Positions 25,001-64,000 of a DNA stretch of 64,000 nt are shown piece after piece. The notes beneath the pieces are model-generated. The model was not told the origin of the DNA. It ran no database searches and was given only the letters and a program-made list of their open reading frames with translations. Source of the DNA: Liolophura sinensis (taxonomy: Eukaryota > Mollusca > Polyplacophora > Chitonida > Chitonidae); assembly GCF_032854445.1 (NCBI RefSeq), contig NC_088300.1, positions 10,726,001-10,790,000 on the forward strand, written 5' to 3'. Every line of letters starts with the position of its first letter. The first letter of the stretch is position 1. The position numbers were made by a program, and so were the translations under genes.

Positions 25001-28000
25001 GGTTATGATTTTGAGTTTATATGAGGTTATAATCCTGAGGTTATTTGTGGTTATAATTCTGATGTTATGACCCTGAGATTATGATTTGTTTGTTTTATAG
25101 ATTGTGGAGAAGAATCCTGACCCGGAGACAACATTACTGCTGTTCCTACGGCAACGCTGTATCCTTACTTAGGAATTCATGTGATTTGATTGTCTTTTTT
25201 TAGTTATATATATATATAAAAAAATTCTTAAAGCTGATTTGGTTAAAATTGTTAATTTCTGGACTGAGCTGGTGATAAAATGTGTTTTGCAGGTTACACA
25301 GTAATATTCTTTTTGTAACAGAAGAGACAAGGAAATTCTGGTAGCCCCATTTTGGCCTATAATAGGCGTTTTTACCAGTGTCTTTTTAGTTGTCATAACA
25401 CCATAAAAGGTATCTTAGAGGATATTTGATTGTCCTCATTTATCAGACCATTAGGTCATTCCTCTCACAAACTTGTAGGTTTCCAAGGTTTCTCTCTTAT
25501 TCTGCTAATTATTTATCTGGTCAGAATCATGATGTTCAGCAGTCAAGCACCACTACAAGCTTGCTGCCTGTAACTTTCTTAACCATTTTTGTCAGTGCGC
25601 CTGACGGGCACTAAGCTAGGCTGTGGGGAAGGAGGATGTGGCGCCTGCACCGTGATGCTCTCCAGATTCGATCGCAAACAGAAGAAAATACTGTATCCAT
25701 TCTATGATATTATCCCCAGCCGGTGGCTAACTGTCATGGCTGATTACACTTATGAGTGTCCAAAGTTAATATAAAGCTTGATATCGTATTGACAGTTCTT
25801 ATGACTTGGGATTCAAGAAAAGAATTACGTGTATACTTTTATCACTAAGTTGAACCTGGGACAATTATAACATTTAGATTCACCCCAGTCTGAGCACAGA
25901 GAGAAGCTTTTTCTACATGTAAAGCAAAGTGTTTCATGATACATGTAGTAGATGTACATGTACCTGGATACGCTCACATACATAACAGATGTCAGGAATT
26001 AATGTGGCGTTAAAAGTTATTTTGTTATGTTTTTTAAGTCAAAGGAATTGTCCTATGCCTAGAACTTGTCCAAATTTTAATCTTGTTTTAAGTATCTGAA
26101 ATGTACATGTAGTTTAGCCTGAAAAAACTTCTGATCTTGAGTGACAATTTCGCCTTAGCCATTTGTCAGACATTACTCTGTCAACTCTTGTCTATATCCG
26201 TTATGTAATGTACATGGACTGGCTGTGACCACAGTGGAGGGGATAGGCAGTGTGGCCCAGGGGCTACACCCTGTCCAGGTAAGGGGTAGCTAACAACAGT
26301 TGAAGGGATAAGCAGTGTGACTCAGGGACTTCCACCTGTCCAGGTAAGGGATAGCTAACAGCAGTGGAGGGGATAGGCAGTGTGACCCAGGTAATACACC
26401 CTGTACGGTTAAGGGATAGCCGGCAACAGTGGAAAGAATAGATTTATTTATTTGATTGGTGTTTTTACGCCGTAGTCAAGAATATTTCACTTATATGACA
26501 GCGGCCAGCATTATGGTGGGAAGAAGCCGGGCAGAGCCCTGGGGAAAGCCAGGACCATCCGCAGTTTGGACACTCCATCCCTGGACACTCTGTCCGGGTA
26601 AGGGATAGCTGACAACAGTGGAGGGGATAGTCAGTGTGGCCCAGGGGCTTGTCCAGGAAGGGATAGCTGACAACAGTGGAGGGGATAGGCAGTGTGGCCC
26701 AGGGGCTACACCCTGCCTAGGTAAGGGATAGCTAACAACATTGGAAGGAATAGACAATATGACCCAGTTATTACACCCTGTCTAGGTAAGGGATAGCTGA
26801 CAACAGTGAAGGGGATAGGCAATGTGGCTCAGGGTCTATACCTTGTCCAGGAAGGGATAGCTGACAACGGTGGAGGGGATAGGCAATGTGGTCTAGGGAC
26901 TACACCCTGTCCAGGGAAGGAATAGCTGACTACAGTGGAATGAATACATCTGGAATATAATACAGAATTTGCAATCCAAATTGTGCAATGTTTAATTCTA
27001 GATGTAATAAAGATTTTGAGGTGTTTAAATCTGGAATGTAATGCACATTGTGTAGTGTATAAATCTGGGATGAAATACAGATTGTAAGGTGTTTAAATCT
27101 TGGATGTGATACAGATTTAGAGGTGTTTAAATCTTGAATGTAATACAGATAGTGCAGTCTATAAATCTGGGATGTAATACACATTGTGCAGTGTATAAAT
27201 CTGGGATGTAATACACATTGTGCAGTGTATAAATTTGGGATGTAATATACATTTTGCAGTGTATAAATCTGGGATGTAATACACACTGCAATGTATAAAT
27301 CTGGAATGTACTTCACGTTGTGCAGTGTATAAATCTGGAATGTAATACAGTCTATAAATCTGAAATGTATCACAGTGTATAAATCTGGAATGTAACAGTG
27401 TATAAATCTGGGATGTAACAGTGTATAAATCTGGGGTATAACACAGTATTTAAATCTGGGATGTGACACTGTATATATCTGGGATGTACAGGGTGTCCCA
27501 GAAGCCGCATTGTGCAGTGTATAAATCTGGAATGTAATACAGTTTATAAATCTGAAATGTATCACAGTGTATAAATCTGGAATGTAACAGTGTATAAATC
27601 AGGGATGTAACAGTGTATAAATCTGGGGTATAACACAGTGTTTAAATCTGGGATGTGACACTGTATAAATCTGGGATGTAACACGATGTTTAAATCTGGG
27701 ATGTAACACAGTGTATAAATCTGTTATGTAACATAGTGAATAAATCTGGGATGTAACAAAGTGTATAAATCTCGGATATAACAGAGTGTATAAATCTAGG
27801 ATGTAACAGTGTATAAATCTGGGATGTAACAGTGTATTAATATGGGATGTGACACTGTGTAAATCTGTGTTTAAGTCAGGGATGTAACACTGTATAAATC
27901 TTGAATGTAACACTGTTTAAATCTGGGCTGTAACAGTGTATAAACCTTGGATGTAACACAATCTATAAATCTGGGATGTGACACTGTGTAAATCTGTATA

Positions 28001-29085
28001 AATCTGGGATGTGACACTGTGTAAATCTGGCATGTAGCAGTGTATAAATCTGGAATGTAACAGTGTATAAATGTGGGATGTGATGCTGTATAAATCTGGG
28101 ATGTAACACTGTTTAAATCTGGAATGTAACACACTGTATAAGTCTGGGATGTAACACTGTATAAATCTGGGATGTAATGCACTGTATAATCTGGGATGTA
28201 ACACTGTGTATAAATCTGGGATGTAACGCCTACTGTCTGGTGACACATGTCTATGGTGACTGTGAGACAAGATAGTGGAGGATGGCCGTGGTTCATTTCT
28301 TACTCTATTGATCTAGTTTTCAGTCTAGTCCCAGCTGATGAACAACTTGTATGCCTGTAATGATCGAAATGACGCATATCTACCTTGTGTAATATTTCAG
28401 GAGAGGATAGCCAAATCGCACGGCTCCCAGTGTGGTTTCTGTACCCCAGGCATTGTCATGTCCATGTACACCCTTCTGAGGAACAACCCTCTGCCCTCCA
28501 CACATGAGATGGAACATGCTTTTGATGGTATGTCAGTCACTGCTATGTTGTAACACACACTGGAATTTTACTTGATTGCCAGTCTCCCTTTGTCACACTT
28601 GATATCCTTTGTGTTATTTGCATATACATGTACATGCACTGTAAGAAGCAATGAACAAACACTGAGTACTGAGAGGTTAGAGCATGAAAACAGGACTGGT
28701 TGGCCTGATTGGCCCGGTGTTGTTATAATAGCTATGTTATAATGTGACACGTGGACATGATGGAGTACTTCAGCGCTGGCAACACTTTGGCGGCATGGAT
28801 TTGGCATGCCAAAAGAAGCAGACTTTTGTTACTGGTACACATTAAGTTCATAATTTAATGAAGGAAGTGATAATGATACTTGTAGCATTATGCCTGTCTT
28901 TCTCAATGTTTGGGCTGCCCTGTCTGGCCTTTTTTCCCCTGTAGACCATGCATATTGTGTTTGCTGAGAGGCAATAGTGTCTTGTATTTAAGATGTTCAC
29001 ATACGTGAAATGTTGTTCTGTAGGAAACCTTTGCCGCTGTACTGGTTACAGACCAATACTGGATGGATTCCGCACCTTCACAAAG
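22008..29085 (+). CDS. XDH: XDH exons 1-6: N-terminal two 2Fe-2S domains
   Basis: Exons: 22008-22076, 25101-25158, 25596-25692, 26170-26278, 28401-28527, 29024-29085. The protein begins [20 protein letters not shown]. The plant-type ferredoxin motif [19 protein letters not shown] (exon 3) supplies three cysteines and NSCLYPLC (exon 4) the fourth. The second cluster is bound by [10 protein letters not shown] (exon 5) and [10 protein letters not shown] (exon 6). Most XDHs read NACLxPxC at the fourth cysteine; here Ser and Tyr replace neighbours but the cysteine is kept. Phases at junctions agree throughout. Intron 1 (22077-25100) holds the inverted-repeat element, a foldback hairpin and two SINEs; intron 4 holds an exon-4-edge array and a second minisatellite. 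Confidence 0.95.
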
Positions 29086-29808
29086 GTACTGTGTCTGCTT
29101 GTGTTAATGTGTAATTGGCTGTGGCAAGTGCATCGAAAAAGGGCCTAGAAAACAAGTTGTTTTCCACAAATTGGGAGCCTACTTTCAAATAACTTTTCTT
29201 AGCAGATCAAACCCTTCCCCATGCCATATCAAAAGTTTTCCTCTATAGAACCCGCCAAAATTTTTCTACAAGAATTTGAACATAGGAGGAGTGGTAAAAA
29301 AACTGAGATCTTTATGTTTTTAATGAGAATGTGTAAAAATGATTTTTTTTCACTTTATTATCACACAAATCGTGTTTTTATTTTTAGATTTTAGACTGCC
29401 ACTAGACCATTTTGAGAAGGACTCCACCTATCAAACATTGAGTGCTAGGACAACATTTTGTATTCCATGGAACAAAAAATAAAAAGTCAAATCAATGGAG
29501 ATAAATTTTCCTAGATAAAGATAACATCAAATGTCTACAAAAAAACGCATCTTCTTCCTTCAGATTTGCAAGAGTTAAGTCCCTAGGCAGTTTACACCGC
29601 TTGGCAGTCTTTGTAAATTCAGCTCATGAGGGTCTTTTCGTTCCAAAACATTGGTAAAGGTTCTTACATATCTGATTATTTTTCAAGTTTATTTTATTAC
29701 GTACTATTTTGTAGGGCTGGGTTTGTTATATACTGGAAGTAAATTGACAATATCACTGGAGAATACATTTGCCGGGTACACATTTTATTTTAAAAATATT
29801 AAACTTAC

Positions 29809-29878
<70 letters not shown>

Positions 29879-32800
29879 AACCCAGCCTTGGACAGGGAAT
29901 TTCCCAGCGCACAATGTTTTTGGTGCCATGGTGATCGTAAGTGGTCAACAACGCCCATGTGCCCACTTCCTGTGGTTTCCTCCACCCTTAAAACTGGCCG
30001 TCATTGTATAAGGAAAACTCATGAGTATGGGCTTAAGCAACAATCCAATAAGTAAATAAATAAACATTTGGAAAATCTCAAAACATTTTTCATGTTTGCC
30101 AATACATATGTTTAATGTTTCAGGTTGCATGAAAACATTTTTTTTTTAAATTTTTGGTGCCTATCTATTTGTAGGAATGTGCCATGGGTGAAAACTGTTG
30201 TAAAAATCTATCAAAGACAAGAGAAAATGGTGACCAGAATGGAGTCAAACTCAGTGATGTGAGTTTTGTTACAGTTGTGTTTTGTCATTCAAATATGCCG
30301 TATTAATCATTTGAGATTCTGAATATACAAAGCACTAATGTTGCCCGAAATGAAGACTTTAGAGTATACTTGTATATATGAAGATTGCTCTGTATACTTG
30401 TATATGTGAAGACGTGTCTGTATACGTGCATATTTGAAAAACTATACTTGTATATGAACTATACTTGTATGTGAACTACACTTGTATATTTGAAAACTTA
30501 ATATTGTCAAATGTCAATGTAATTTTATGCTAGTACATTGATTTAAATAGATAGTTGTGAATTTGCTTAAATATCAGACCAGTACCGGTTGTGCCTTGAG
30601 CCCATTATCTCTCAGCATGGTACTATACATATATGGTTGTACATTACCTGAATAATCCTTCCTTCAGATTTGCAAGCGATTTGGTGCCTGACTCTGAGGT
30701 CTCTGGTTCGAAACCCGCAGTGGTCTCAGCCAAATTCCGCTCTAGAATCTGTGCTATATTCAGGAAGTGTAATCCCTATTAACAATAATACTGTTGCTAA
30801 ATAAGATATACATGTAAGCATATACTTATATTATTGTTACATAATTCCACTGTAACACAGGTGACAGTGGATCATTTGGATGCCAAGGATTTCAAACCAT
30901 ACAACCCTTCTCAAGAGCCCATCTTCCCTCCAGAACTTCAGGTATGGTAACCACGGTAACTTCATTGAAGCTTTGTTTTTGTTTTGTACAGTTGTATGTT
31001 TATATATTTTTGTTCTTGATGTGTATGAGGGTCACTTGTTGATAAAACTGTTGGAGCTGGTGCTACCTTGACCAGGGATGCAGCGTGTTTGGATCCAATT
31101 AATGCTAGTTTTGTCGGTAGATTTTGTCAGGTATGTGCCTGGTATAAAGGTTTTCTCTGTGGTTTGTTACACCGGCCCCGATAGCTTAGTTGGTAGAGCA
31201 TCTGCTTCAGGAGCTGTAGATCCAGGGTCAATCCTCTGCCAGGTCACACCTAAGGCTTTAAAAGAGGAAGTTGTAGCTTTCTCACTTAGCGTTCAGCAAT
31301 AAGGGGAAGTGCAATGACTGGTTAACCCAAATCAGTATAAATGCTCTTTTGGGGCAGCTTACTTGTCTTCAGTAAGCCGTCTCTGTGAAGCAGCACTAGG
31401 TAAAAGAGTGGTGGAAATCTGTCCTGCAATAAGGAGGCATATTACATGCATTCTAAGGATTCCTTCATTGTCATGTGACTGAAAAATTGTATGATGTTAA
31501 ACCCCAAGCACTCACTCACTCCATGGTTTGTCACAACCATTTATATGTTGCTGGAAGACCTTCCCACATATGACCGGAGAGAAAGTCAGCATGAGGGGGA
31601 CTTTTAGCCAGCATGAGGTGGATAAAACTCTGTAGTGTGTGCATGTTAATTGTTATAATTCTCCATTTTATGAATGGTTATCATCAGTCAAGTTTTATTC
31701 TGGCAGGAATAAGCCTCTTACAATGTGTATTGCAGTTAACACATGTAATTTTATGATTCTTTGCTTTGCTGGATTACTAGATGTCAGATGAATTGGACAA
31801 GGCATCACTGAAGTTTGAGGGAGAAAGAGCCACTTGGTACCGTCCAGTGACCCTCACTCAGCTACTGGAGCTGAAGGCATCCCACCCAGACGCTGTGCTG
31901 GTCAATGGGAACTCAGAGATAGGTAAGATTTGTATGGGGAAATACAAAGTAGAAACTTCAGAGACACTTGTGAGTAACAATTATATGGGGATTTGTAGCA
32001 TAGGGATACATGTACAAGGATTGAGTGAGTTGGAGCCCAGATGTACAAGGATTGGGGAAGGTGGAACTCAAATATACAAGGGTTCAGCGAGTTGGAATTT
32101 AGATATGTAAGGGTTGAGGGAGTTGGAACTCAGAAGTTCATGTACATGGATTGAGGGAGTTGGAACTCAGAAGTTCATGTACGTGGATTGAGGGAGTTGG
32201 AACTCAGAAGTTCATGTACGTGGATTGAGGGAGTTGGAACTCAGATGTACATGTACATGGATTGAGGGAGTTGGAACTCAGAAGTTCATGTACAAAGATT
32301 AAGGGAGTTGGAACTCAAATGTATCTCTACATGGATTGAGGGAGTTGGAACCCAGATGTACAAAGATTGAGGGAGTTGGTACTCACATTTACAAGGGTTG
32401 AGGGAGTTGGAATTCACATGTATTATTTGCCATTATTATCCTGTCATCAAATTTTTAATCTACAGTCAAGTACAACACGACAAAGTGCTCATTTATTCAT
32501 TTTATCAGTAACCAGAAAACTGTTGATAAATTGACACAGCAGTGTAGAATCTTTTAAAAATTACTTAGTATAGTCTGCTTTGTTTTTGGTTTACACAGGG
32601 GTGGAAATTAAGTTCAAGTCCAAAGTGTATCCAGTAATAATTGCCACGACACATATCCCAGAACTGAGAGGGGTAGAGCTGACAGATTCAGGCGTGGTGT
32701 TTGGGGGATCAGTAACGCTGACAGAGATTGAGATCTACCTCAGATCTGTTGTGGAGTTGCTGCCAGGTAAGACTAGATTTGTTAGATTCAGGTGTGGTGT

Positions 32801-35800
32801 TTGGGGATCAGTAACGCTGACCGAGATTGAGATCTACCTCAGATCAGTTGTGAAGTTGCTGCCAGGTAAGACTAGATTTGTTAGATTCAGGTGTGGTGTT
32901 TGGGGATCAGTAATGCTGACAGAGATTGAGATCTACCTCAGATCAGTTGTGAAGTTGCTGCCAGGTAAGACTAGATTTGTTAGATTCAGGTGTGGTGTTT
33001 GGGGATCAGTAATGCTGACAGAGATTGAGATCTACCTCAGATCAGTTGTGAAGTTGCTGCCAGGTAAGACTAGATTTGTTAGATTAAGGTGTGGTGTTTT
33101 GGGGATCAGTAACGCTGACAGAGATTGAGATCTACCTCAAATCAGTTGTGAAGTTGCTGCCAGGTAAGACTAGATTTGTTAGATTCAGGTGTGGTGTTTT
33201 GGGGATCAGTAATGCTGACAGAGATTGAGATCTACCTCAGATCAGTTGTGGAGTCACTGCCAGGTAAGACTAGCGCTGACAGATTTAGGTGTGGTGTGTG
33301 AGGGGTCAGTGGTGCTGAGAGAGACTGAGATCTACCTCAGATCAGTTGTGGAGTCACTGCCAGGTAAGACTAGAGCTGACAGATTTAGGTGTGGTGTGTG
33401 AGGGGTCAGTGGTGCTGAGAGAGACTGAGATCTACCTCAGATCAGTTGTGGAGTCACTGCCAGGTAAGACTAGAGCTGACAGATTTAGGTGTGGTGTGTG
33501 AGGGGTCAGTGGTGCTGACAGAGATTGAGATCTACCTCAGATCAGTTGTGGAGTCACTGCCAGGTAAGACTAGAGCTGACAGATTCAGATGTGGTGTTTG
33601 GGGGATCAGTAACACTGCCAAAGGTTGAGATCAGCCTTAGATCAGTTGTGGACTCCCTGCCAGGTAAGACTAGAGCTAACAGATTCAGACGTGGTGTTTG
33701 GGGGATCAGTAACACTGCGAAAGGTTGAGATCAACCTTAAATCACTTGTGGAGTCTCTGCCAGGTAAGACTAGGTCTGTCAGATTCTGGTGTGGTATTTG
33801 GGGGGATCAGTGATGCTGACAGAGATTGAGATCTACCTCAGGTCTGTTGTGGAGTCACTGACAGGTAAGACCGGAGCTGACAGATTCAGGTGTGGTGTGT
33901 GAGGGGTCAATGGTGCTGACAGAGACTGAGATTTACCTTAGATCAGTTGTGAAGTCACTGCCAGGTAACTAGAGCTAACACATTCAGGTGTAGTGTTAGG
34001 GGAATTAGTATCTGAAAGAGATGGAGATCTACCTCAGATCAGTTGTGGAGTTGCTGCGACGTAAGACTAGGTCTGTGGTGTTTTGGGGATCAGTAACGCT
34101 GACAGAGATTGAGATCTACCTCAGATCAGTTATGCTGCCAGGTACTGTATGGGCTCAGGCTTTTAAATCTTAAAAGAACATCTCAGACCAAAGACAAAAA
34201 TGTCACGAAATGAGAATTTATAGTGGTCAGGAAGTTAATGTATGAAGAATAAAGAATAAAAAAAAATGTCTTTGCTCGATGTGTCTGTGAATATAATAGA
34301 ACAAACTATTTGATCAGAATTTTTTTATGTTTGTCCAGCAAGTAGTTTTGACTCAAAAATCCCTGCGGAGGAATGTGAAATGTTGATATTTCTTACCTTT
34401 AGTGCCCAGATTAAATCTTCTAACTAAGGTTTTTTGAAGCACTGAGTGGACCATTTTTTGTATTTATTTGTTTTATTAGTGTTTTACGCATATTCAGGAA
34501 TATTTCACTTGTACGACTGTGGCCAACATTATGGTGCTAGGACCACCTTTTGTAGTCAACAAGAATAGTTGAATATGTGTTAATACATGGATTGGCACAC
34601 TGAAATTATTTGCAGAATATTTACAACATGTATTTAGTGGGAAATGTGTTTGTTTTATGTTGTGTATTTGTACTTATTTCTCTGTCAAATAGAGCACAAG
34701 TCCAGGACATATGTTGCCATGTTAGAGATGCTGCGTTGGTTTGCTGGACATCAGATCAGGAAATGTTGCTGTAAGTACTGAAAGTTTTGTATTGTACACT
34801 GTTTAACATTTTCACTCTTATGTGATTAATGTTCACCGTGGAAAAAAAAGATATGAATTGCATGTGAATGAAAGGATGAATGAATGATTATAGCTTGACA
34901 CCACGATGGCAATATTTCAGCCATATTGTGAGGGGAACATGTTTATACTAGGAGACAGTAAATGACTTTTGATGTGATGGAAACATTCAAAGTAAAACAG
35001 AAAAGACAGACAGAGTTCAGAGCAGTTAAGAAGAACCAACCCTCGTTAAAACTCAAAACCACAATATTTGTATTAGAATAGATAATCTAGAAAATTGTAT
35101 CCCAGTGTATACATATACATGTATACATGTATACATGTATGTGGAAAGAATTTGATCTTGTATATAGGCCAATGGTGTTTCAAATATTTAATGACAGCAT
35201 CACCAGTAATGCTGTCATGTAAATCAAATATAGTGTTGATTGTGTAAAACTTTTTTGAACATTAAAGTGCTTGTGTGTGCTGTAGTTATTTTGATGCTAT
35301 GTATGGTGTTTTGTTTGTGTGGTATTTGCAGGTCATTGCCTATCTTATATGGTTTTGTTTCCTGTATTTGTAGGCTATTGCAGGGAACATCATGACAGCC
35401 AGTCCAATCTCTGATCTGAACCCGATCCTTCTGTCAGCTAAAGCTGTTCTCAGACTGGCTTCTAAGGGTGAGTCACCTTGACATCTTTGTCAGGCATAAC
35501 TTTGCAGTGTCCATTCAACTTGTATGGTCAACAAAAAGTTTGAATGCCTTCCTACATGCATGCGGTATTACAGGTAAAATATCTCATTTAATATTATTAT
35601 AATATTATGTCAGCAGTAAAGTGAACTTGATTGAGTGTGAATAACAGGAGAAAAGACTTTTGATAGTCCTGCTCTACCCTGACAGCAATTAAACATCATA
35701 CAACCAATTAATACACTGTGACAGCTTGTCCTCTATTTAGCAATAATGGTTTGCTGGATCTCTTATTATGTAAATGTAAACCACATGTTCAGATTAATAA

Positions 35801-38800
35801 TTTCTCTTTCACTCTCCATACGTTTTTCAGATGGTGGTTACAGAGAACTGAAAATGGATCACAATTTTTTCAAGGGTTATCGCCGCACTGCTGTCAAACC
35901 AGAGGAAATTCTTATTTCAGTTCACATTCTGTTCACCTCTGAGGCAAGTTCATTTAATAATTGTTTCCTACAATGTTAGCACAAGCATTTGGAGAACTAC
36001 TTAAGGTACAAAATTCTCCCAACACTTACAACTATATGAGAGATAGTCTGTTGAAATTTAGCACAGCATCATCTACCTCCACCTCTAGTCCAGTTTAACC
36101 CTTGCAAAGCTTTGACACTCATGGTCAGTCTCCTTATTTTCCTTCTTCGTGATTTGTCAAGATTGATGAAAAGATTTTGAATGTTAATGGAGAAATGCTG
36201 TTTTTCAGACGGAGTACTTTTCAGCATACAAACAATCACACAGACGAGATGATGACATCGCCATTGTAAATGCTGCAGTGAGGGTGGTGTTTGAGGAAGG
36301 GTGTGACCGGGTGCGGGAACTGACCCTCAGCTACGGTGGGATGGCTCCCACCACTGTCATGGCACACAAGGCCATGAAGTCTGCTGTGGGAAGGTCAGCT
36401 GTAGCAAGTCATAATTATGTCCTCCTCGTACATCTAGGTGAATTCTCCGAGTGCAATTAGTATTACTATATTACTATATGTGTTGTGAAATGATCTTTTA
36501 CAGATCTCTCTCAGTGTTTTGGAGAAATTTTGCGTATGAATGTAGTTCTTTAATTATCCGCCATATTTATTTGAATGAATCACGGAGTTGATCTTATTTT
36601 ACTATTAACTTGCCAAAAAGGGAATCTGTTTATGTTCTCTGAATACCTATTATTGTGTAATCACTGATGTACTAATTATTGTGTAATCACTGATGTACTA
36701 ATTATTGTGTAATCACTGATGTACTAATTATTGTGTAATCACTGATGTACTAATTATTGTGTAATCACTGATGTACTAATTATTGTGTAATCACTGATGT
36801 ACTAATTATTGTGTAATCACTGATGTACTAATTATTGTGTAATCACTGATGTACTAATTATTGTGTAATCACTGATGTACTTCAGTCTGTGAATTCTCAC
36901 TCCTGTATTGCAACTTATCATCAGGTGTTGGGATGATGAGTTGCTGTCTCAGGTGTGCAGGGATCTGGCAGAGGACATGCCCCTCCCCCCTGGAGTTCCG
37001 GGTGGAATGGCGGAGTATCGGCAAACGCTTACTGCTAGCTTCTTCTTCAAGTTCTACCTCTCTGTCAAACTCAAAATACAGAATCAGGTGAGTGAATTTA
37101 CACCCTACAAATATAACGTATTATCATCAGGTCTAACCTGTCATTTTTAAGTTTGATCTTTGGTTTTTTAAAATAGTTAAATATGACGTTGACAAACCGT
37201 GATGTTACTTGCTCTGTGGTGTTTTCCATTTTGGCAGCTGTCAGTCAAGTCTCCAGTTCCTGCTTCCTATCACAGTGCCACTCCCACATTTCACAGAGAA
37301 CCAACCAGAAGTCTCCAGCTGTATGAGGAAGTGGTTGAGGGACAAGATATTGAAGATGTGGTGGGTAGGCCCCTCCCACATCTATCCTCCATCAAGCAGG
37401 CCACAGGAGAGGCTACTTACGTGGATGATATGCCACCATACAAAGGTACACTATTACTCTTGGAATAACCTCATTGTGTTCCTCTGAGCTCCTTTCTACG
37501 GTGGTCAGTTTAGTAGCAGAATTTACTGAGTTTTAAAGTTGCTGTAGTTTGAAAAACAGATCTTCAGTTATTTCAGTCCCAAATGGAAAGGAAAACTTAT
37601 TAGCTTGAAATGTGTGTGCATGAAGCTCTGGAGAAAGAAAGTGCTGGCTACCCATCCTGGCCATGGCCTTTGGTGCCGTGTTGTAATTAGCATTTTAAGT
37701 TTTTCACATTTGTTGTATCAAAAATAAACAAGAAAGACTAGATAAAAAAAAATCATTGATTATTGTAAAGAACAGTCATTAAAATCCCAGTTGTTTTACA
37801 GCATACATGTAGCTATGATCATTATTGGTCATTGATGGAAGTCACCAATTATTTATTTTATTACTTTTCATTAATATATATGTGTGCACATGTAACTGCC
37901 AGTCAGTGTCATTTTCTAATATTTGTTTTTCTGTTTATTGATGTTGTCTTGGGGCTTTTATGACCATCTTACTATTTGGAACCCAACTTTATCGTGGATG
38001 AACTATCACTTATCAGTGTGTCACTCAGACATCCTATCACTCCATGATATCATGTTGTTATTCTTGTGTCTTCTGTAGAGGAATTGTTCCTGGCCCTGGT
38101 CCTTAGCACTAAAGCCCATGCTAACATCGTCAGTATGGACGTCTCTGCCGCCCTGGAGATGCCGGGTGTTGTAAACTGTGTTACCTGTAATGATGTACCT
38201 GGCAGTAACCTGTGGGGCATCATCAACCAGGACGAACAGTTGTTTGCTGATCAGAAGGTATCACATGCAGCACTATGTTTATCACTACCTACCTTATGTA
38301 CCTGTCCTGTAACGATGTACCTGGCAATAACTGGTGGGGCATCATCAATCAGGATACGCAGTTGTTTGCTGATCAGAATGTATCACATACAGCACTATGT
38401 TTATCTTTACCTACCTTGTATACCTGTCCTGTAATGATGTACCTGGCAGTAACCTGTAGGGCATCATCAACCAGGACGCGCAGTTGTTTGCTGATCAGAA
38501 CGTATCACATACCTACCTTTTGTATCTGTCCTGTAACGATGTACCTGGCAGTAATCTGTGGGGCATCATCAGTCAGGATGAACGGTTGTTTGCTGATCAG
38601 AAGGTATTACATACAGCACTATGTTTATCACTGTCTACCTTATATACCTGTCCTGTAATGATGTACCTGGCAGTAACCTGTGGGGCATCATCAGGACACA
38701 CAGTGGTTGCTGATCAGAAGGTATCACATGCAGCACTATGTTTATCACTACCTACCTTATGTACCTGTCCTGTAACGATGTGCCTGGCAATAACTGGTGG

Positions 38801-50800: not shown

Positions 50801-51506
50801 TCAAGAGGTTTATATTTGATCCCTCTCCCTCTACAGGCTACTGGTGAACCACCGCTGTTCCTGGCTGCGTCTGTCTTCTATGCCGTAAAGGATGCCATCA
50901 TGGCAGCCCGAGCAGAATCTGGTCTCCATGGTAACTTTGCTCTCAGTTGTCCGGCCACACCGGAGAGGATCCGTATGGCATGTGAGGACCAGTTCACAAA
51001 AATGGTGAGTTATGTGTGGTCACCTTGTTTAGAGAGAGTCATCAAAACATGATGTACCTTTACACCTGTCCGGAATCTAGTCGGCTAGTATTTGGAAGAT
51101 GTTTTAAATAATTTTGGTAGATATGTTCCCATGTCAGTCTGTACGTTTTGACATCACAAAAATTATTAAGGTTGCAGATATCTTGAAGGTTTTGAAAAGA
51201 AAGGGTATTTTACCTGTTTTCAGATTTATTCATATGAACTGCATGTATGACAGAATTTCAAGGACATTGTATAAAATGAGTACAAGAGAAGGTGCTCGTT
51301 CAAATCCAGCTTTGGGCAGGGATATTTTCTATATAACCAGCCATCCAATATTTGGAATGTCTTGGTGGCAATAAGCGGCTTCCAGTTCTCATAAGGTGTT
51401 TAATCTCACTGAAGAACTCTGCATGTATGTTGTTGTGACATCTGGTATGTTTCAGTTCCCTGCAGCTGAACCAGGTACATTTAAACCATGGTACGTTGAA
51501 CTTTGA
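22008..51506 (+). CDS. XDH: Xanthine dehydrogenase/oxidase, 35 coding exons, complete
   Basis: Molybdo-flavoenzyme that oxidises hypoxanthine to xanthine and xanthine to urate, passing electrons through two 2Fe-2S centres and FAD to NAD+; cytosolic (peroxisomal in some animals). The start ATG at 22008 has A at -3; the TGA ends at 51506. Exons total 4030 nt, one more than 1343 codons. The extra base is traced to exon 11, so the intended protein is about 1342 residues (vertebrate XDH is about 1333). XDH rather than aldehyde oxidase is supported by [10 protein letters not shown] (Glu802 of the bovine enzyme), NTAFRGFG (Arg880), GEPPLFL (Glu1261) and FFKGYRRT in the FAD/NAD region. All introns are GT-AG except a GC donor after exon 13. 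Introns are crowded with minisatellites, several made of copies of exon edges. Exon coordinates are given in the three domain entries. Confidence 0.95.
22191..22351. mobile_element. MITE-like element with about 27-bp terminal inverted repeats
   Basis: Left end accctaattcttctaaaatttgg and right end ccaaattttagaagaaataggg are near-perfect reverse complements (22191-22219 and 22324-22351) around about 105 bases of non-coding sequence. Size and structure fit a small non-autonomous DNA element. Solitary related ends occur near 13588 and 56793. It lies in XDH intron 1. No target-site duplication was confirmed. Confidence 0.55.
22427..22508. repeat. Foldback hairpin, 35-bp arms
   Basis: Arm 22428-22462 (gggtatacaggtatatattt, then ggctgaggttgataat) pairs with 22473-22508 (attatcaacctcatccaaat, then gtctacccgtataccc) around a 10-base loop, with few mismatches. 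It could form a long stem in RNA or be a tiny foldback transposon. It lies in XDH intron 1. Confidence 0.7.
23705..23890 (-). mobile_element. SINE family A copy, head-truncated
   Basis: Reverse copy: ttggtgttttacaccgtact and caagaatatttcacttatac at the 3' end, central block with gggtggaactgggcagggcc and gtacggccggaaaggaagcc, ending within the head (gagctggacttgaactcaca). In XDH intron 1. Confidence 0.8.
24680..24805 (+). mobile_element. SINE family A, 3' fragment
   Basis: It retains gggctctgcccatgcagttt, ataatgctggcccgcc, gtgaaatattcttgagta and an AAATAAATGAA tail. In XDH intron 1. Confidence 0.65.
24885..25080. repeat. 14-bp minisatellite (gaggttatgatttt), about 13 copies
   Basis: The 14-base unit with variants (gaggctatgatttt, gaggttataatcct) runs to within about 20 bases of the XDH exon 2 acceptor. 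No similarity to the exon. Confidence 0.85.
26227..26940 (+). repeat. Tandem array copied from the 3' edge of XDH exon 4
   Basis: Exon 4 ends 'accacagtggaggggatagg', 'cagtgtggcccaggggct', acaccctgtccag and then gtaagg. Intron 4 continues with about nine copies of a 60- to 64-bp unit holding the same stretch, a donor-like ccag-gtaagg and 'gatagctaacaaca'. Some copies have lost the GT (ccaggaagg). Only the first is in the exon. A SINE interrupts the array at 26440-26565. Confidence 0.9.
26440..26565 (-). mobile_element. SINE family A fragment inserted in the exon-4-edge array
   Basis: Reverse copy with gatttatttatttgattggt, gaatatttcacttatatgac, cagcattatggtggg and gggcagagccctggggaaa, ending in gaccatccgcag. 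Array units lie on both sides, so the array had already begun when this copy inserted. Confidence 0.8.
26940..28240. repeat. 23- to 26-bp minisatellite (tgtataaatctgggatgtaa), about 50 copies
   Basis: Long degenerate array in XDH intron 4 between exons 4 and 5. Period varies through indels. Two stretches (around 27290-27480 and 27505-27680) are near-identical blocks, a higher-order duplication separated by a 'gtgtcccagaagccgc' insert. Minus-strand open frames across it only translate the repeat. Confidence 0.9.
28640..28805 (+). mobile_element. SINE body fragment (same body as 43650-43830)
   Basis: The block gagaggttagagcatgaaaa, caggactggttggcctg, and further on agcgctggcaacactttggc and ggcatgccaaaagaagcag also occurs at 43665-43820. 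It has no tRNA-like head here. In XDH intron 5. Confidence 0.55.
29813..29875. repeat. (TA)n microsatellite, about 30 dinucleotides
   Basis: Uninterrupted TA run in XDH intron 6. Likely length-polymorphic. Confidence 0.95.
29890..30062 (+). mobile_element. SINE family A, diverged copy
   Basis: Recognisable only by order: ttcccagcgcacaatg, ctggccgtcattgtataagg, actcatgagtatggg and an AAATAAATAAA tail. In XDH intron 6. Confidence 0.4.
30175..37087 (+). CDS. XDH: XDH exons 7-15: linker and FAD domain
   Basis: Exons: 30175-30258, 30861-30941, 31781-31922, 32599-32766, 34693-34770, 35374-35467, 35831-35943, 36209-36393, 36925-37087. Recognisable blocks: ECAMGENCC linker, [19 protein letters not shown] and GVEIKFKSK of the FAD fold, [10 protein letters not shown], then [48 protein letters not shown], and FFFKFYLSV at the end. 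Exon 11 contains one base too many (AAA at 34761-34763), which breaks the frame before the conserved GGN segment. Exon 13 ends with a GC donor (35944-35945). Exon 10 is followed by an array of copies of its own 3' end. Confidence 0.93.
31175..31525 (+). mobile_element. tRNA-derived SINE, family B, about full length
   Basis: The head gccccgatagcttagttggt, agagcatctgcttcagg carries an A-box-like segment, and gggtcaatcct is a weak B box. A body with ccgtctctgtgaagcagcac follows, and the end is 'gactgaaaaattgtatgatg', ttaaaccccaagcactcact. This head-plus-tail combination is common in molluscan genomes. It is not a functional tRNA: no matching acceptor stem and a damaged T arm. In XDH intron 8. 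Confidence 0.75.
31545..31600 (-). mobile_element. SINE family A central-block fragment
   Basis: A short reverse match, gttgctggaagaccttccca and catatgaccggagagaaagt, to the central block. No ends or tail. Confidence 0.5.
31960..32420. repeat. 37- to 40-bp minisatellite (ggattgagggagttggaact), about 11 copies
   Basis: The unit also includes cagaagttcatgtaca. It begins a few dozen bases after the exon 9 donor in XDH intron 9. A short 'ggaactcaga' string is shared with the end of exon 9 but is too short to prove an exon origin. Confidence 0.85.
32767..34147 (+). repeat. Array copied from the 3' edge of XDH exon 10, 14 extra donors
   Basis: Units of 99-100 bp repeat the last ~75 bases of exon 10 (gtggtgtttggggatcagta, acgctgacagagattgagat, ctacctcagatcagttgtgg) with the donor and first intron bases (ccag-gtaagactag). 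Donor GTs stand at 32767 (true), 32866, 32965, 33064, 33164, 33264, 33364, 33464, 33564, 33664, 33765, 33865, 33965, about 34061 and 34142. The frame of exon 10 stays open across the first units to 33128. Later units drift (protein-like shadow frames to 33813 only translate copies). Confidence 0.95.
34455..34545 (-). mobile_element. SINE family A, 3' end fragment
   Basis: Reverse end block: tatttgttttattagtgttt, tacgcatattcaggaatatt, tcacttgtacgactgtggcc, aacattatggtg. In XDH intron 10, just after the exon-10-edge array. Confidence 0.65.
36640..36885. repeat. 26-bp minisatellite (attgtgtaatcactgatgta), 9 near-identical copies
   Basis: Very regular copies with almost no substitutions, so recent or homogenised. 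In XDH intron 14, ending about 40 bases before the exon 15 acceptor. Not similar to the exon. Confidence 0.95.
37238..51506 (+). CDS. XDH: XDH exons 16-35: molybdopterin (Moco) domain
   Basis: Exons: 37238-37445, 38079-38257, 39505-39624, 40210-40431, 41135-41198, 41528-41597, 42275-42362, 43187-43273, 43977-44168, 44581-44726, 45323-45404, 45898-45993, 46284-46412, 47163-47237, 47760-47812, 49135-49249, 49710-49796, 50212-50379, 50837-51004, 51456-51506. Motifs in order: [39 protein letters not shown] (Gln767), [10 protein letters not shown] (Phe798, Glu802), [20 protein letters not shown] (Arg880), VAFT (Phe1009), [73 protein letters not shown] (Glu1261), and a C-terminus of FKPWYVEL. All phases agree. 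Bovine residue numbers are from memory of the well-studied structure. Confidence 0.95.
38258..39335 (+). repeat. Array copied from the 3' edge of XDH exon 17, about 9 units of 121 bp
   Basis: Each unit repeats the exon 17 end (aacgatgtacctggcagtaa, cctgtggggcatcatcaacc, gttgtttgctgatcagaag) followed by the donor-like gtatcacat and the start of intron 17 (cagcactatgtttatcacta). The true donor is at 38258; donor-like GTs recur near 38380, 38502, 38604, 38721 and 39107, with changed bases in other units (ttgtgtc, agatgtc). A SINE interrupts the array before the last unit. Frames across it translate as repeated CNDVPGSN-type peptides but carry stops and shifts. Confidence 0.93.
39140..39252 (+). 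mobile_element. SINE family A 3' fragment inside the exon-17-edge array
   Basis: It has cctgggctctgcccggtttc, ataatgctggctgccatcg, gaaatattcttgagtacggc and an AAATAAATA tail. Array units flank it on both sides. Confidence 0.8.
39436..39504 (+). repeat. Two extra copies of the XDH exon 18 acceptor edge
   Basis: The true junction reads tgtttgtgtttcag-gtaacgtgtc. Immediately upstream are two ~30-bp copies, tgtgctacag-gtaacaggta and ttttgctacag-gtaacagg. Both hold an acceptor-like AG followed by the start of the exon, with drift after six bases. Short, but arranged as in the larger edge arrays. Confidence 0.7.
40590..41050. repeat. 17-bp-type minisatellite (accattcacactgtacaa)
   Basis: Irregular array of accattcacactgtaca variants in XDH intron 19, ending near the exon 20 acceptor. 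No exon similarity seen. Confidence 0.8.
41600..42135 (+). repeat. Six degenerate copies of the whole of XDH exon 21 with both splice sites
   Basis: Exon 21 (41528-41597) is short. Intron 21 holds copies starting near 41635, 41738, 41826, 41929, 42015 and 42113, each with an acceptor-like acag, a gtgggggatttgggg-type exon start, and most ending in a cagc-aacaa-gtgagt-like donor. Copies near 41738 and 41929, and near 41826 and 42015, are near-identical pairs, so a block of about 190 bp was duplicated. The copies contain a stop (GGT GGG TGA) or lost bases, so none is a usable alternative exon. Confidence 0.9.
42830..43125. repeat. 26-bp minisatellite (cagtgttgtagaattgtaac), about 11 copies
   Basis: Regular array in XDH intron 22, about 60 bases before the exon 23 acceptor. 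The unit does not match either neighbouring exon. Confidence 0.9.
43555..43875 (+). mobile_element. tRNA-derived SINE with family C head and shared body
   Basis: The head ctttggtggcctaatgtcta, gaatgtctgcctcaaagtcg parallels the reverse copy at 19525. The body gagaggttagagcaaggaaa, caggactggctggctc matches 28640. The end 'gactgaaaattgttaggtac' resembles the family B tail. Suggests related SINEs sharing modules. In XDH intron 23. Confidence 0.65.
44250..44365 (+). mobile_element. SINE family A, 3' fragment
   Basis: ccccgggctctgcctggttt, gaagctggctgacgttg, gtgaaatattcttaagtaca and an AAATAAATAAAT tail. In XDH intron 24. Confidence 0.75.
44960..45095 (+). mobile_element. SINE family A, 3' fragment
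   Basis: gcaacatgcggatggtcatg, ggtttgcccctgggctctat, ataatgctggccattgtct and an AAATAAATAAATAAA tail. In XDH intron 25. Confidence 0.75.
46414..47162. other. XDH intron 28, no feature beyond a SINE remnant
   Basis: Apart from a short reverse SINE-A-like remnant near 46800-46835 (tatttatttgttttattggt), no repeat, gene or exon copy is seen. Confidence 0.4.
47825..48690. repeat. 30-bp minisatellite (cctcctctgtcatgtctgtt type), about 29 copies
   Basis: The unit contains ctcctctgtcatgtctgtta and cctatataat or cctatacagt. It starts right after the exon 30 donor region in XDH intron 30. Because 30 is a multiple of three and the unit lacks stops, it gives a 298-codon open frame, which is an artefact. 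No match to exon 30 or 31. Confidence 0.95.
48705..48942 (+). mobile_element. SINE family A copy, near full length
   Basis: tgacccaggagctgcttacc, gtcgccatgagttcaagtcc, the central block with ggatggtcgtgggtttccct, the end 'cagtattcttgagtacggcg' and a long AAATAAAT tail. Directly abuts the 30-bp array in XDH intron 30. Confidence 0.85.
49268..49348 (+). repeat. Single duplicate of the XDH exon 31 donor edge
   Basis: The segment caggtgtggcgtgttctcta, gtggaggcag, then ctgtctgacaggagaccatc and atgtaataaacagtac repeats the last ~60 bases of exon 31 plus the start of intron 31 (ccatcag-gtaataaccagtac). The donor-like position reads atGTAATA. The copy also has a 5-base insertion (attac). One extra unit only. 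Confidence 0.85.
49440..49635 (+). mobile_element. SINE family A copy with internal deletion
   Basis: tgcagcaaactgacccagg head remnant, cctctccggtcatacatagg, gcaacctgcggatggttgtg, ataatgctggctggctgcc, tgaaatattgttgagcatgg and a caatcaataaata tail. In XDH intron 31. Confidence 0.75.
50405..50528 (+). mobile_element. SINE family A, 3' fragment, diverged
   Basis: caggttttccccaatttctg, ctcggtttctccctcc, 'aagtggaatgttcttgagtg' and gaaatgcaccaatcagataa. In XDH intron 33. Confidence 0.55.
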
Positions 51507-52880: not shown

Positions 52881-52884
52881 GCTT

Positions 52885-59600: not shown

Positions 59601-59641
59601 ACTGCAGCTGAGTGCAGTACCTATCTTACCATCCGTGGATA

Positions 59642-62400
59642 ATGGGTGTCTCTGAGATTATCAGCTCTCTTCAGGCAAACCCATACTTTGGTGCTGGGGC
59701 AGGGTTGTTTGGTGTAGGGGCTGCTGCTGCTATCCTGCGCAAAGGCAGTCAGTATGGGATGATCTTGTTCCGGCGGCACTGCATGATTACATTGGAGGTG
59801 CCAAGTAAAGACAAGAGTTATCTGTGGCTGTTACAGTGGATCTCTACGAAGGGCACACGCACCCAGCATCTCAGCGTGGAGACCAGCTTCCACCAAACAG
59901 AGGCAGGACGAATCAACACCCAGTTTGACTTTGTGCCCAGCCCAGGTAGTCATTTCTTCAGGTATAAAAACACATGGATTCGTGTAGAAAGGACTCGCGA
60001 GAAGCAAATGTTGGATTTACATTCTGGTATTCCCTGGGAGACTGTTACACTTACTGCTATGGGGCAAAACCGTGCCATCTATTTTGATATTCTAGAAGAG
60101 GCACGGCATTTAGCATTACAGAAGCGTGAGGGAAGGACTATAATGTATACAGCCATTGGCCCAGAATGGCGTCAGCAGGGTTATCCCCGCAGGAAACGAC
60201 CAATCACATCTGTGGTATTAGACCAAGGAATATCTGAGAGGATTCTGACAGATATTCGTGAGTTTATTAACAGTCCCAAGTGGTACATGGAGCGTGGCAT
60301 CCCTTACAGGAGAGGGTATTTACTCTATGGGCCTCCAGGCTGTGGCAAAAGTAGCTACATCACAGCCCTCTCAGGTAAGGTTTTCAACATAAACCAGCCC
60401 AGCTTTTTATTTGTGCTGCTAACTTTTATGCATTAAACGAAATATATTATTTAGATGGTCTTTAAAATAGACAATGGTCATACACATACATGTACATGTA
60501 TATCAGTTGACATTTTGCCTGTGTGAAATTGAAAGGTGTAGCATAGAAGTGATTGATTCATAAATAACTTTTTAAAAATCATGTGCTGCTCATTCAGTCT
60601 TGCTACTACAATTTACATGTAGGCGAGCAATCAGGACCACAATTGCTATGTTCTTATTTGCGTTGAGCTAGACTATGGTTGCTCTGGTGTTGCTTCATGT
60701 GAGCTGAACTATAATGGCTATGTTTATATTTCATGTAAGCTGGACTATAGTTGCTGTGTTCTTATTTTAGATAAGCTGGACTATAGTTGCTGTGTTTCAA
60801 TCTCAGACGAACTGGACTATTGTACATGTATAGTTCCTGTGTTCTTATTTCAGGTGAGCTGGACTATTGTTGCTATGTTCTTAATTCAAGTGAACTGGAG
60901 TATTGTTGCTGTGTTCTTATTTCAGATGAGCTGGACTATAGTGTGTATGTTCTTGTTTAGGTTAGCTGGACTATAGTTGCTATGTTCTTATTTCAGGTGA
61001 GCTGGACTTTAGTTGGCGTGCTCTTATTCCAGATGAGCTGGACTATAGTTGCTATGTTCAAATCTTAATTCAGGTGAGCTGGATTATAGTTTCTGTGTTC
61101 TTAATTCGGGTGAGCTGCAGTATAGATGCTATGTTTTTATTTCAGGCGAGCTGGAGTATACAATTCCTGTGTTCTGGACTTTAGTTGGCGTGCTCTTATT
61201 CCAGATGAACTAGACTATAATTATCATGTTCTTGTTTCAGGTGAGCTGGATTATAGTTGCTATGCTCTTAATTCAGGTGAGCTGCACTTTAGATGCTGTG
61301 TTTTTATTCAGGCTATGTTCTTAATTCAGGTGAGCTGGAATGTACAGGACCTATGTTTTTTTATCAGACAAGCTGGAGTATAGCTGGTGTGTTCTTGTTT
61401 CAGGTAAGATTGACTTTGGTTGCTGTGTTTTTATTTTAGGGGAGCTGGATTATATTTGCTATGTTCTTAATTCAGGTGAGCTGGATTATCGTTGCTTTGT
61501 TCTTGTTTCAGGTGAACTGGACTATAGTTCCCAAGTTCATGTTTCAGGTGAGCTGCATTATAGTTGCTGTGTTCTTAATTCAGGTGAGTTGGACTACAGC
61601 TGCCATGTTTTTATTCCAGCTGAGCTGGTCTATACATGTAGTTGCTCTGTTCTTATTTCAGGTAAGCTGGACTATAGTCCACATGTTCTTATTTCAGGTG
61701 AACTGGAATATACAGTTCCTATGATCTTTTTTTAGGTGAGCTGGACTAGTTTCCATGTTCTTGTTTCATGTGAGCTGGAATATACAGTTCCTGTGTCCTT
61801 ATATCAGATAAGCTGGATTATAGCTGTGTTCTTATTTCAGGTGAACTGGAATATAGAGTTCCTATGATCTTTTTTCAGGTGAGCTGGACTATAGTTTCCA
61901 TGTTCTTATTTCATATGAGCTGGAATATACAGTTCCTATGTTCTCATATCAGATAAACTGGACTATAGCTGCTATGTTCTTATTTCAGGTGAACTGGAAT
62001 ATAGAGTTCCTATGATCTTTTTTCAGGTGAGCTGGACTATAGTTTCCATGTTCTTACTTCATATGAGCTGGAATATACAGTTCCTATGTTCTCATATCAG
62101 ATAAACTGGACTATAGCTGCTATGTTCTTGATTCAGGTCAGCTGGACTATTGTTGTAATGTTCTTGTTTTAGGTGAGGTGGATTATACTTGCTGTGCTCT
62201 TATTTCAGTTGAGCGTGACTATAGTTCCCATGCTCTTATTTCAGGTGAACTGGACTATAGTATTTGTGTGCTCAACCTGAGTGAGCGAGGACTTTCTGAT
62301 GACAGACTAAACCACTTATTGACTTCCGCCCCAGAACAAAGTATTATTTTGTTAGAGGACATTGATGCAGCCTTCATAAGCAGAGATCTGGCAGCAGAAA
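59642..62400 (+). CDS. BCS1L: BCS1L, mitochondrial complex III assembly AAA ATPase, first two coding exons (partial)
   Basis: BCS1 is an inner-membrane AAA ATPase that moves the folded Rieske iron-sulfur protein across the membrane into complex III. Coding exon 1 is 59642-60374 (probably with 5' UTR from 59601, after ctcattacag); exon 2 is 62245-62400. The start [20 protein letters not shown] fits the family better than the in-frame ATG at 59612. Residues about 17-33 form the single membrane segment, followed by the import region and BCS1 domain ([49 protein letters not shown]). Walker A is GPPGCGKSS (230-238) and Walker B IILLEDID (278-285), then [10 protein letters not shown]. The phase-1 end expects an exon reading NPVxYQGxGRL next, which lies beyond the window. 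About 297 of roughly 420 residues are covered. Both introns are filled with arrays of exon-edge copies. Confidence 0.95.
60640..62244 (+). repeat. Array copied from the 5' edge of BCS1L exon 2, about 28 units
   Basis: The true junction reads tgctcttatttcag-gtgaactgg, actatagtatttgtgtg. The intron is filled with ~57-bp units of form ttgctatgttcttatttcag, gtgagctggactatag. The upstream polypyrimidine tract and acceptor AG are copied together with the first ~18 exon bases. Many units keep a good acceptor; others have attcag, tttagg or catgtg changes. Forward frames through it repeatedly read GELDYS-like peptides from the exon start. Only the last unit continues into the real exon. Confidence 0.95.
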
Positions 62401-62479
62401 GTAAGTTTTAGCCCAGGTTTGAGGAGGAAGTTTGTTTATCTGTGTGGGAATTTTCTCAAGTTTAGATGATTTGCTGATG

Positions 62480-64000
62480 TAGTATATTGACTGGCAGATT
62501 TGTGTATGTTGACAGACCCAGTAACCTATCATGGAATCAGCAGACTGTAACCTTGTGACTTTTGTGTGTTGACAGACCCAGTAGCCTATCAGAAAATGGA
62601 CAGGCTGTAACACTGTGACTTGTGTGTGTTGACAGACCTAGTAGCCTATCAGGGAATGGACAACCTGTAACCTTGTGACTTTTGTTTGTTGAGAGATCCA
62701 GTAGCCTATCAGGGAATGAACAGGCTGTAACATTGCGACTTATGTGTGTTGACAGACCCAGTAGCCTATCAGGGAATGGGCAGACTATGACATTGTGGCT
62801 TGTGTGTGTTGACAGACCCAGTAGCCTATCAGGGAATGGACAGGCTCTAACATTGTGACTTGTGTGTATTGACAGACCCAGTAGCCTATCAGGGAATGAG
62901 CAGGCTGTGACATTGTGGCTTTTGTGTATTGACAGACCCAGTAGCGTATCAGGGAATGGACAGGCTGTAACAATGCGACTTGTGTGTGTTGACAGACCCA
63001 GTAGCCTAACAGGGAATGGGCAGGCTCTAACATTATGACTAGTGTATATTGACAGACCCAGTAGCCTATCAGGGAATGAGCAGGCTGTGACATTGTGGCT
63101 TTTGTGTATTGACAGACCCAGTAGCGTATCAGGGAATGGACAGGCTGTAGCACTGCGACTAGTGTGTGTTGACAGACCATGTAGCCTAACAGGGAATGGG
63201 CAGGCTCTAACATTGTGACTAGTGTGTATTGACAGACCCAGTAGCCTATCAGGGAATGGGCAGGCTATAACATTGTGACTTGTGTGTATTGACAGACCAT
63301 GTAGCTATTCTGGGGATGGACAGGCTATAATATTGTGACTTGTGTTGACAGACCCAGTAGCGTATCAGGGAATGGGCAGGCTATAACATTGTGACTTTTG
63401 TGTTGACAGACCAAGTAGCCTATTAGGGAATGGACAGGCTGTAACATTGCGACTTGTGTGTGTTGACAGACCATGTAGCCTATCAGGGAATGGACAGGCT
63501 CTGACATTGTGACTTTGGTGTTGACAGACCAAGTAACCTATCAGGGAATGGACAGGTTGTAACATTTTGTTGACAGACCCAGTAGCCTATCAGGTAATGG
63601 GCAGGCTATAACATTGTGACTTGTGTGTGTTGACAGACCATGTAGCCTATCAGGGAATGGACAGGCTCTGACATTGTGACTTTGGTGTTGACAGACCAAG
63701 TAACCTATCAGGGAATGGACAGGTTGTAACATTTTGTTGACAGACCCAGTAGCCTATCAGGGAATGGGCAGGCTATAACATTGTGACTTGTGTGTATTGA
63801 CAGACCCAATAGCGTATCAGGGAATGAGCAGGCTCTAACATTGTGACTTTTGTGTTGACAGACCAAGTAGCCTATCAGGGAATGGACAGGTTTAAACATT
63901 TTGTTGACAGACCCAGTAGCCTATTGGGGAATGGACAGGCTGTAACATTGCGACTTATGTGTGTTGACTGACCCAGTAGCCTATCAGGTAATGGGCAGGC
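62480..64000 (+). repeat. Array copied from the 5' edge of BCS1L exon 3, about 25 units
   Basis: Units of about 60 bp read gtgtgttgacag, acccagtagcctatcaggga, atgggcaggct, ataacattgtgactt. Joined to the exon 2 end (GCAGAAA), the string acccagtagcctatcaggga translates as NPVAYQG and then MGRL, exactly the conserved BCS1 sequence that should follow. After ~30 exon-like bases every unit diverges to repeat-specific sequence, so no complete exon 3 is in the window. The last unit (to 64000) has gactg in place of gacag. Array continues past the window. Confidence 0.93.

What the first reader, a model, noticed from the sequence alone, without database searches (positions are those of the whole stretch)
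26227..64000. Recurrent intron arrays built from copies of splice-site-spanning exon edges in two unrelated genes
Seen in sequence: at least eight introns of XDH and BCS1L contain tandem duplications whose unit is a neighbouring exon edge, that is, the donor or acceptor, 18-75 exon bases and a short intron piece. They occur at XDH exons 4, 10, 17, 31 (donor edges), exon 18 (acceptor edge) and exon 21 (whole exon), and at BCS1L exons 2 and 3 (acceptor edges). Unit sizes range from about 30 to 121 bp and copy number from 1 to about 28. In every case the copy that keeps the reading frame is the one contiguous with the exon; the others lie inside the intron. Inference: tandem duplication across a splice site is nearly neutral because splicing keeps one copy, so each event lengthens the intron. 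That would be a ratchet for intron growth and a source of many decoy splice sites. I do not know of this described as a genome-wide habit.
Basis: partly seen in the sequence, partly recalled or inferred. Interest (0 to 1): 0.88.

Follow-up and report, generated by a model that had tools for sequence, protein, structure and literature searches.

The report
Splice-site minisatellites ("mirages") in a chiton
In this chiton genome the edges of gene exons, splice signal included, have been copied in tandem into the neighbouring introns, in one case about 95 times; this kind of repeat was already known as "mirages" in lancelets, and finding it in a mollusc gives a natural test of how cells pick the right splice site.

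Summary
Six XDH junctions (one marginal) and two BCS1L junctions carry tandem arrays whose unit spans the splice site; the second BCS1L array runs beyond the window to about 95 copies. The genome matches the published HiFi assembly of the chiton Liolophura japonica.

It is not private to these genes. In 22 further loci, 11 of 80 tandem arrays span one of 324 called junctions, in 9 of 22 loci. Random placement predicts 4.5 (P about 0.003), or 5.0-5.5 with a GC correction (P 0.008-0.015). The window's XDH alone is not above chance (4 against 2.5). One array lies wholly inside an exon where 8.4 were expected. In 18 arrays the copied GT/AG are not eroded (33 mismatches against 48.8 expected).

Best reading: tandem duplications that happen to span a junction, then minisatellite turnover, silent because splicing uses the exon-attached copy (splicing was not observed). 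The claim of novelty fails: these are the "mirages" of amphioxus Adh3, globin, TnC and PGBD5 genes, with human CBS parallels. New here: a mollusc, a prevalence estimate, a suggestive two-fold exon-edge excess, and intact decoys. A directional growth ratchet is not shown.

The parts
26231..26939 (+).
32674..34144 (+).
38184..39150 (+).
39430..39509 (+).
41577..42138 (+).
49181..49352 (+).
60643..62261 (+). BCS1L exon 2 acceptor-edge array, 36 bp unit, 44 copies; true acceptor, first exon base 62245
62500..64000 (+). Window part of the BCS1L exon 3 acceptor-edge array (60 bp unit, 94.7 copies, to 68112 in L008; true acceptor 68085)
25592..50992 (+). XDH coding exons modelled here (32 exons)

Best explanation
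These are boundary-spanning minisatellites of the kind called mirages. A tandem duplication of some 30-125 bp happens to cover a splice junction. It is tolerated because the copy joined to the exon body still gives the normal exon, so further copies fall in the intron. Unequal exchange or slippage then expands and turns over the array, from one extra copy (XDH exon 29) to about 95 (BCS1L exon 3). Duplications wholly inside coding exons are removed by selection. The copied sites stay intact because they are not used, most simply because exon definition takes the site that gives the shortest, real exon. Shown: the arrays, their positions, depletion inside exons, intact decoys, recurrence in unrelated genes. 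Inferred: the mutational mechanism, near-neutrality, and which site is spliced.
For: Arrays verified base by base at 17 edges and at two BCS1L edges. 11 of 80 arrays in 22 other loci span a junction. Whole-exon-internal arrays 1 against 8.4 expected. Decoys: 266 of 299 copies keep the dinucleotide, 33 mismatches against 48.8 expected from neighbouring positions. Units are a multiple of 3 in 7 of 18 arrays, as chance gives, so they are not protein repeats. Two units tested match only at their own locus. HiFi mean read length 8,347 bp exceeds the longest array seen, 5.6 kb. The same structures in amphioxus do not disturb splicing by RT-PCR (PMC3087553 passages).
Against: No RNA was examined. Edge arrays exceed blind placement about two-fold, which pure tolerance does not predict. 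In 4 of 18 arrays (XDH exons 2 and 19, XDA, MY2) the dinucleotide is more often changed than its neighbours. Copies had to align across the junction to be counted, which favours intact ones. Whole-exon copies at XDH exon 19 are poorly preserved.
Confidence: 0.85

Rival explanations
1. Exon edges are true birth hot spots or refuges: composition, co-transcriptional structure or polymerase pausing raises the rate or survival of tandem duplications there, beyond mere tolerance.
For: 22 loci: 11 edge arrays against 4.5 expected (P 0.003); ratio 1.99-3.34 over five TRF settings and three period rules, P 0.0003-0.020; 11 against 5.0-5.5 after GC correction, P 0.008-0.015; no matching excess of intronic arrays near exons.
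Against: Only 11 arrays; exon sets of the 22 loci are incomplete; window XDH alone 4 against 2.5, P 0.21; units of 25 bp or more prefer GC-rich sequence (tilt 4.0, 95% 1.25-6.75), which explains part of it.
Confidence: 0.35
2. Arrays grow directionally from the exon, which acts as a protected template.
For: Identity to the exon copy falls with distance in 13 of 16 arrays, with permutation P 0.022 or less in four (CCT1, MY2, XDH exon 8, BCS1L exon 3).
Against: Any tandem array shows such a decline from either end; near half more alike than far half in 10 of 16 only, Wilcoxon p 0.17.
Confidence: 0.15
3. The copies are used: alternative or recursive splice sites that regulate the gene.
For: 194 of 299 decoys score at least as high as the true site by a simple score; AGGTRAG, a recursive-site-like word, occurs 15 times in the BCS1L exon 2 array and 11 times in the XDA array.
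Against: Arrays sit at different edges in XDH and its paralogues; no AGGTRAG in 4 of 6 acceptor arrays; unit lengths are not biased to multiples of 3 (7 of 18).
Confidence: 0.07
4. Assembly artefact.
For: Coverage 14x, heterozygosity 1.24%; one amphioxus mirage was mis-assembled.
Against: HiFi reads longer on average than the longest array; copies diverged; same pattern in independent loci.
Confidence: 0.03

Closest known systems
Amphioxus 'mirages' (Adh3, globins BflGb6 and BflGb9, TnC, PGBD5)
   Same: [quoted passage not shown] PMC3902484 passages).
   Different: Another phylum; up to about 95 copies against 6 and 3 in BflGb6 haplotypes; here counted over many loci; RNA and polymorphism not tested here.
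Human CBS c.844_845ins68 and the CBS 31-bp VNTR c.1444_1467+7
   Same: [quoted passage not shown] a 31-bp unit which, by its numbering, covers 24 exon and 7 intron bases (PMC2630376 passages).
   Different: Single-gene cases in people.
Intron gain by tandem duplication (Rogers model; potato RdRp)
   Same: Tandem duplication crossing an intron-exon boundary (PMC4974935 passages).
   Different: There a new intron arises and exon sequence is added; here an existing intron lengthens.
Introners
   Same: Repeats carrying splice signals inside genes.
   Different: Introners copy themselves into many genes (PMC9860276, listing); two units tested here match only their own locus.

Membership tests
Mirages | Tandem repeat whose unit spans an exon-intron boundary | tested here: met
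Mirages | Both 5' and 3' exon boundaries affected | tested here: met
   12 donor and 6 acceptor arrays among 18
Mirages | Units of minisatellite size (10-160 bp in amphioxus) | tested here: met
   31-124 bp in 18 arrays
Mirages | Regular mRNA splicing undisturbed | not testable with these tools
   no RNA data here; RT-PCR in amphioxus
Mirages | Length polymorphism or somatic instability | not testable with these tools
   one haploid assembly only
Introners | Dispersed near-identical copies in many genes | tested here: not met
   two units searched genome-wide: 11 of 11 and 43 of 43 matches at their own locus; the tool skips very common words
Duplicated (mutually exclusive) exons | Whole exons copied with both splice sites | tested here: not met
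   one side only at the edges; exceptions: degenerate whole-exon matches at XDH exon 19; whole-exon copies in MY1 are kept apart and not counted
Intron gain by tandem duplication | An intron at a new position in the protein | not tested
   intron positions were not compared with outgroups

The most novel reading that the evidence does not exclude
In this mollusc exon edges are preferred birthplaces (or refuges) of minisatellites, about two-fold over random placement although they carry splice signals, so that a few per cent of all splice junctions sit beside arrays of intact, unused copies of themselves, and splice-site choice there must rest on exon definition alone.
Probability: 0.35. Interest if true: 0.72.

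Novelty: new member of a known kind. Interest (0 to 1): 0.52.

Why it matters
If a few per cent of junctions carry such arrays (11 of 324 in the sample), a chiton offers very many natural experiments in which near-identical splice sites compete and one is taken: at BCS1L exon 3, 84 of 94 decoys score at least as high as the true site by a simple score. It would show that mirages are not a lancelet oddity. It gives a measurable route of intron lengthening: 7,187 of 10,821 bases at BCS1L, 3,648 of 25,401 at XDH, 6,797 of 237,752 in the 22 other loci. Gene annotation and RNA mapping in such genomes are likely to err at these sites.

Tried and rejected
Amphioxus as the source was considered because of the mirage literature. 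A GFP-family search found nothing (the tool warns that this does not show absence). The mitochondrial gene order (that it is the mollusc order is recalled) led to the Liolophura assembly, which fits in scaffold number and in four scaffold lengths.

Filling in missing exons by low-threshold colinear tblastn gave mostly noise and was dropped, so the junction set of the 22 loci stays incomplete. The exon-overlap listing used a faulty mask; its rows XD0 1924, CCT4 758 and CCT4 7478 are not to be trusted, and that call only prompted the GC test. A tRNA scan of the mitochondrial piece gave nothing. A genome-wide count of paired donor motifs was considered and not run, because arrays fill so much of the introns that most short words would pair.

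Rows dropped before counts: cores judged to be dispersed repeats (21 peptide tags) and 7 extra array copies, in the script; one CCT4 donor moved from the second to the first copy. One search printed 17 exon-overlapping arrays; two (CCT4 758, an over-extended core; CCT6 3255, inside an exon) hold no junction and are not among the 15.

The sample: 19 loci were chosen before their sequence was seen; the three XDH paralogues were taken earlier as the other multi-hit clusters, and one search had looked at them for exons only. At least five clusters with 3 or more hits within 15 kb were not fetched (myosin hits near C10:0.72, C8:10.57, C3:10.78 and C10:35.28 Mb; adaptin hits near C1:31.34 Mb), and intronless CCT copies were left out.
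Full report
What was checked. The window is G000:C6:10726001-10790000 of a 609,464,459-base, 632-contig assembly. It corresponds to the published chiton genome Liolophura japonica: 632 scaffolds, 609.5 Mb (609,495,693 bases, so about 31 kb more than held here), HiFi reads of mean 8,347 bp at 14x plus Omni-C (PMC11068029, passages). Four contig lengths equal numbers in that paper (96,433,062; 28,395,274; 27,489,247; 19,479,325). The mitochondrial contig carries cox3-nad3-nad2-cox1-cox2-atp6 with nad5 on the other strand (gene names by my reading of the translations), which I recall as the ancestral mollusc order.

The observation. XDH exons were found by conservation against three paralogous loci and joined at phase-consistent splice sites (32 exons, 25592-50992). 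A PDB search with the second half of the protein matches XDH with E 1.5e-162. Self-comparison shows donor-edge repeats at exons 2, 8, 15, 19 and 29. The acceptor case at exon 16 is marginal. BCS1L has acceptor-edge arrays at exon 2 (44.0 copies of 36 bp) and exon 3 (94.7 copies of 60 bp, 62500-68112, mostly beyond the window).

Is it general? I took 22 further loci: 19 chosen from Pfam hits before their sequence was seen (9 Cpn60/CCT, 5 adaptin-like, 5 myosin) and the three XDH paralogues. The sample is not exhaustive of the qualifying clusters. Splice sites were called by score beside exon cores conserved between family members or matched by Pfam: 324 junctions there and 64 in the window XDH. 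TRF arrays of period 12 or more, not inside one exon: 80 and 16. Arrays covering a junction with at least 8 exon and 4 intron bases: 11 of 80 and 4 of 16. The 11 lie in CCT1, CCT4 (two), AP3, AP5, MY1, MY2, MY3 (two), MY4 and XDA, 9 of 22 loci, and were each viewed at base level. That the exon ends make sense as protein was judged partly from recalled family sequences. XDH paralogues B and C have none under this rule, and the one in A is an acceptor edge that in the window XDH carries none, so the arrays do not look inherited from a common ancestor of these paralogues.

Against chance. Each array's unit was placed at random in its gene after collapsing arrays to one unit. The 22 loci give 11 against 4.5 expected (P 0.003); all 23 give 15 against 7.0 (P 0.003); the window XDH alone gives 4 against 2.5 (P 0.21). 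Over five TRF settings and three period rules the ratio is 1.99-3.34 for the 22 loci (P 0.0003-0.020) and 1.67-2.73 for all 23 (P up to 0.040). With a GC preference fitted on intronic arrays, the 22 loci give 11 against 5.0 to 5.5 for units of 25 bp or more (P 0.008-0.015); for all units of 12 bp or more there is no GC preference and the result is unchanged. Distances of the other arrays to the nearest exon, seen against expected: touching within the margin 4/2.2, 1-25 bp 3/4.6, 26-50 bp 5/4.3, 51-100 bp 8/9.1, 101-200 bp 13/15.0, 201-500 bp 20/23.3, over 500 bp 28/30.3. Arrays wholly inside an exon: 1 against 8.4; laxer TRF settings show 3 and 6 such arrays, without an expectation computed. 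So selection removes exon-internal repeats, does not remove edge repeats, and edges hold about twice as many as blind placement predicts. The last point rests on 11 arrays and incomplete exon sets, and I treat it as suggestive.

Are the decoys dying? In 18 arrays, 266 of 299 copies keep the dinucleotide. 11 of 146 donor and 22 of 452 acceptor dinucleotide positions differ from the true copy, against 197 of 2293 and 551 of 6729 neighbouring positions; 33 mismatches where 48.8 would be expected from each array's own rate. Against this, 4 of 18 arrays (XDH exons 2 and 19, XDA, MY2) have relatively more dinucleotide mismatches; copies within an array are not independent; and copies had to align across the junction to be counted. 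By a simple consensus score 194 of 299 decoys equal or beat the true site (84 of 94 at BCS1L exon 3, 36 of 42 at MY2, but 6 of 43 at BCS1L exon 2). Units are multiples of 3 in 7 of 18 arrays, as chance gives.

Is there a ratchet? Identity to the exon copy falls with distance in 13 of 16 arrays with at least 4 copies, with permutation P 0.022 or less in four, but the near half is more alike than the far half in only 10 of 16 (p 0.17). Directional growth is not established. XDH introns with an edge array have a median of 1,247 bp (5 introns), those without 558 bp (26 introns).

Mechanism. The simplest account is tandem duplication blind to gene structure, filtered by selection, then minisatellite turnover. 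For a donor array the true site is the first copy and for an acceptor array the last, so in both the site used is the one giving the shortest exon. Exon definition would explain this, and the human CBS junction duplication shows that splicing can take one copy and leave the protein normal (PMC2630376, passages). This step is inferred; no RNA was seen.

Known or new. The same structures are called mirages in amphioxus. [quoted passage not shown] PMC3902484 (passages) adds PGBD5 and cites TnC. The original Adh3 paper is not held (one search was a failed look-up) and is known to me through these two. My literature searches (open-access text, judged from listings) showed no report of mirages in molluscs and no genome-wide count, the one naming molluscs, returned nothing at four of six terms. 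In the Liolophura genome paper the word intron gave 0 hits; of the five-chiton comparison I saw 12 of 23 places found, none about this. So this is a known kind in a new lineage, with three additions: prevalence in a largely pre-chosen sample, a possible edge preference, and intact decoys.

Noticed in passing
window 14029-15498, minus strand: Intronless adaptin-like reading frame of about 490-504 codons (Adaptin_N E 8.8e-60, also Cnd1), possibly a retrocopy.
   Followed up: partly
window about 26442-26594: A dispersed repeat inside the exon 2 array of XDH that also matches loci at all three XDH paralogues.
   Followed up: no
window about 48720-48909, also 39148-39249, 44929-45058, 49466-49632: Another dispersed repeat recurring in XDH introns and in the paralogous loci.
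   Followed up: no
G000:C99 (COX1 hits from 8348 to 102844): Seven COX1 copies spaced about 15.5 kb on one contig, as a concatemer of the mitochondrial genome would give; assembly artefact or nuclear copies.
   Followed up: no
window numbering 69728-70177 (L008 5728-6177): A third BCS1L array (44 bp, 9.9 copies) ends close to the next coding frame (70127-70465); whether it enters the exon was not resolved.
   Followed up: no
L029+L030 (MY1): Whole-exon copies in a muscle-type myosin gene (for example three copies of one exon), which look like ordinary alternative exons and not edge arrays.
   Followed up: no
BCS1L exon 2 array (window 60643-62261) and XDA array (L002 5587-6208): Acceptor copies followed at once by a donor-like word (AGGTRAG, 15 and 11 times), as in recursive splice sites.
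   Followed up: partly
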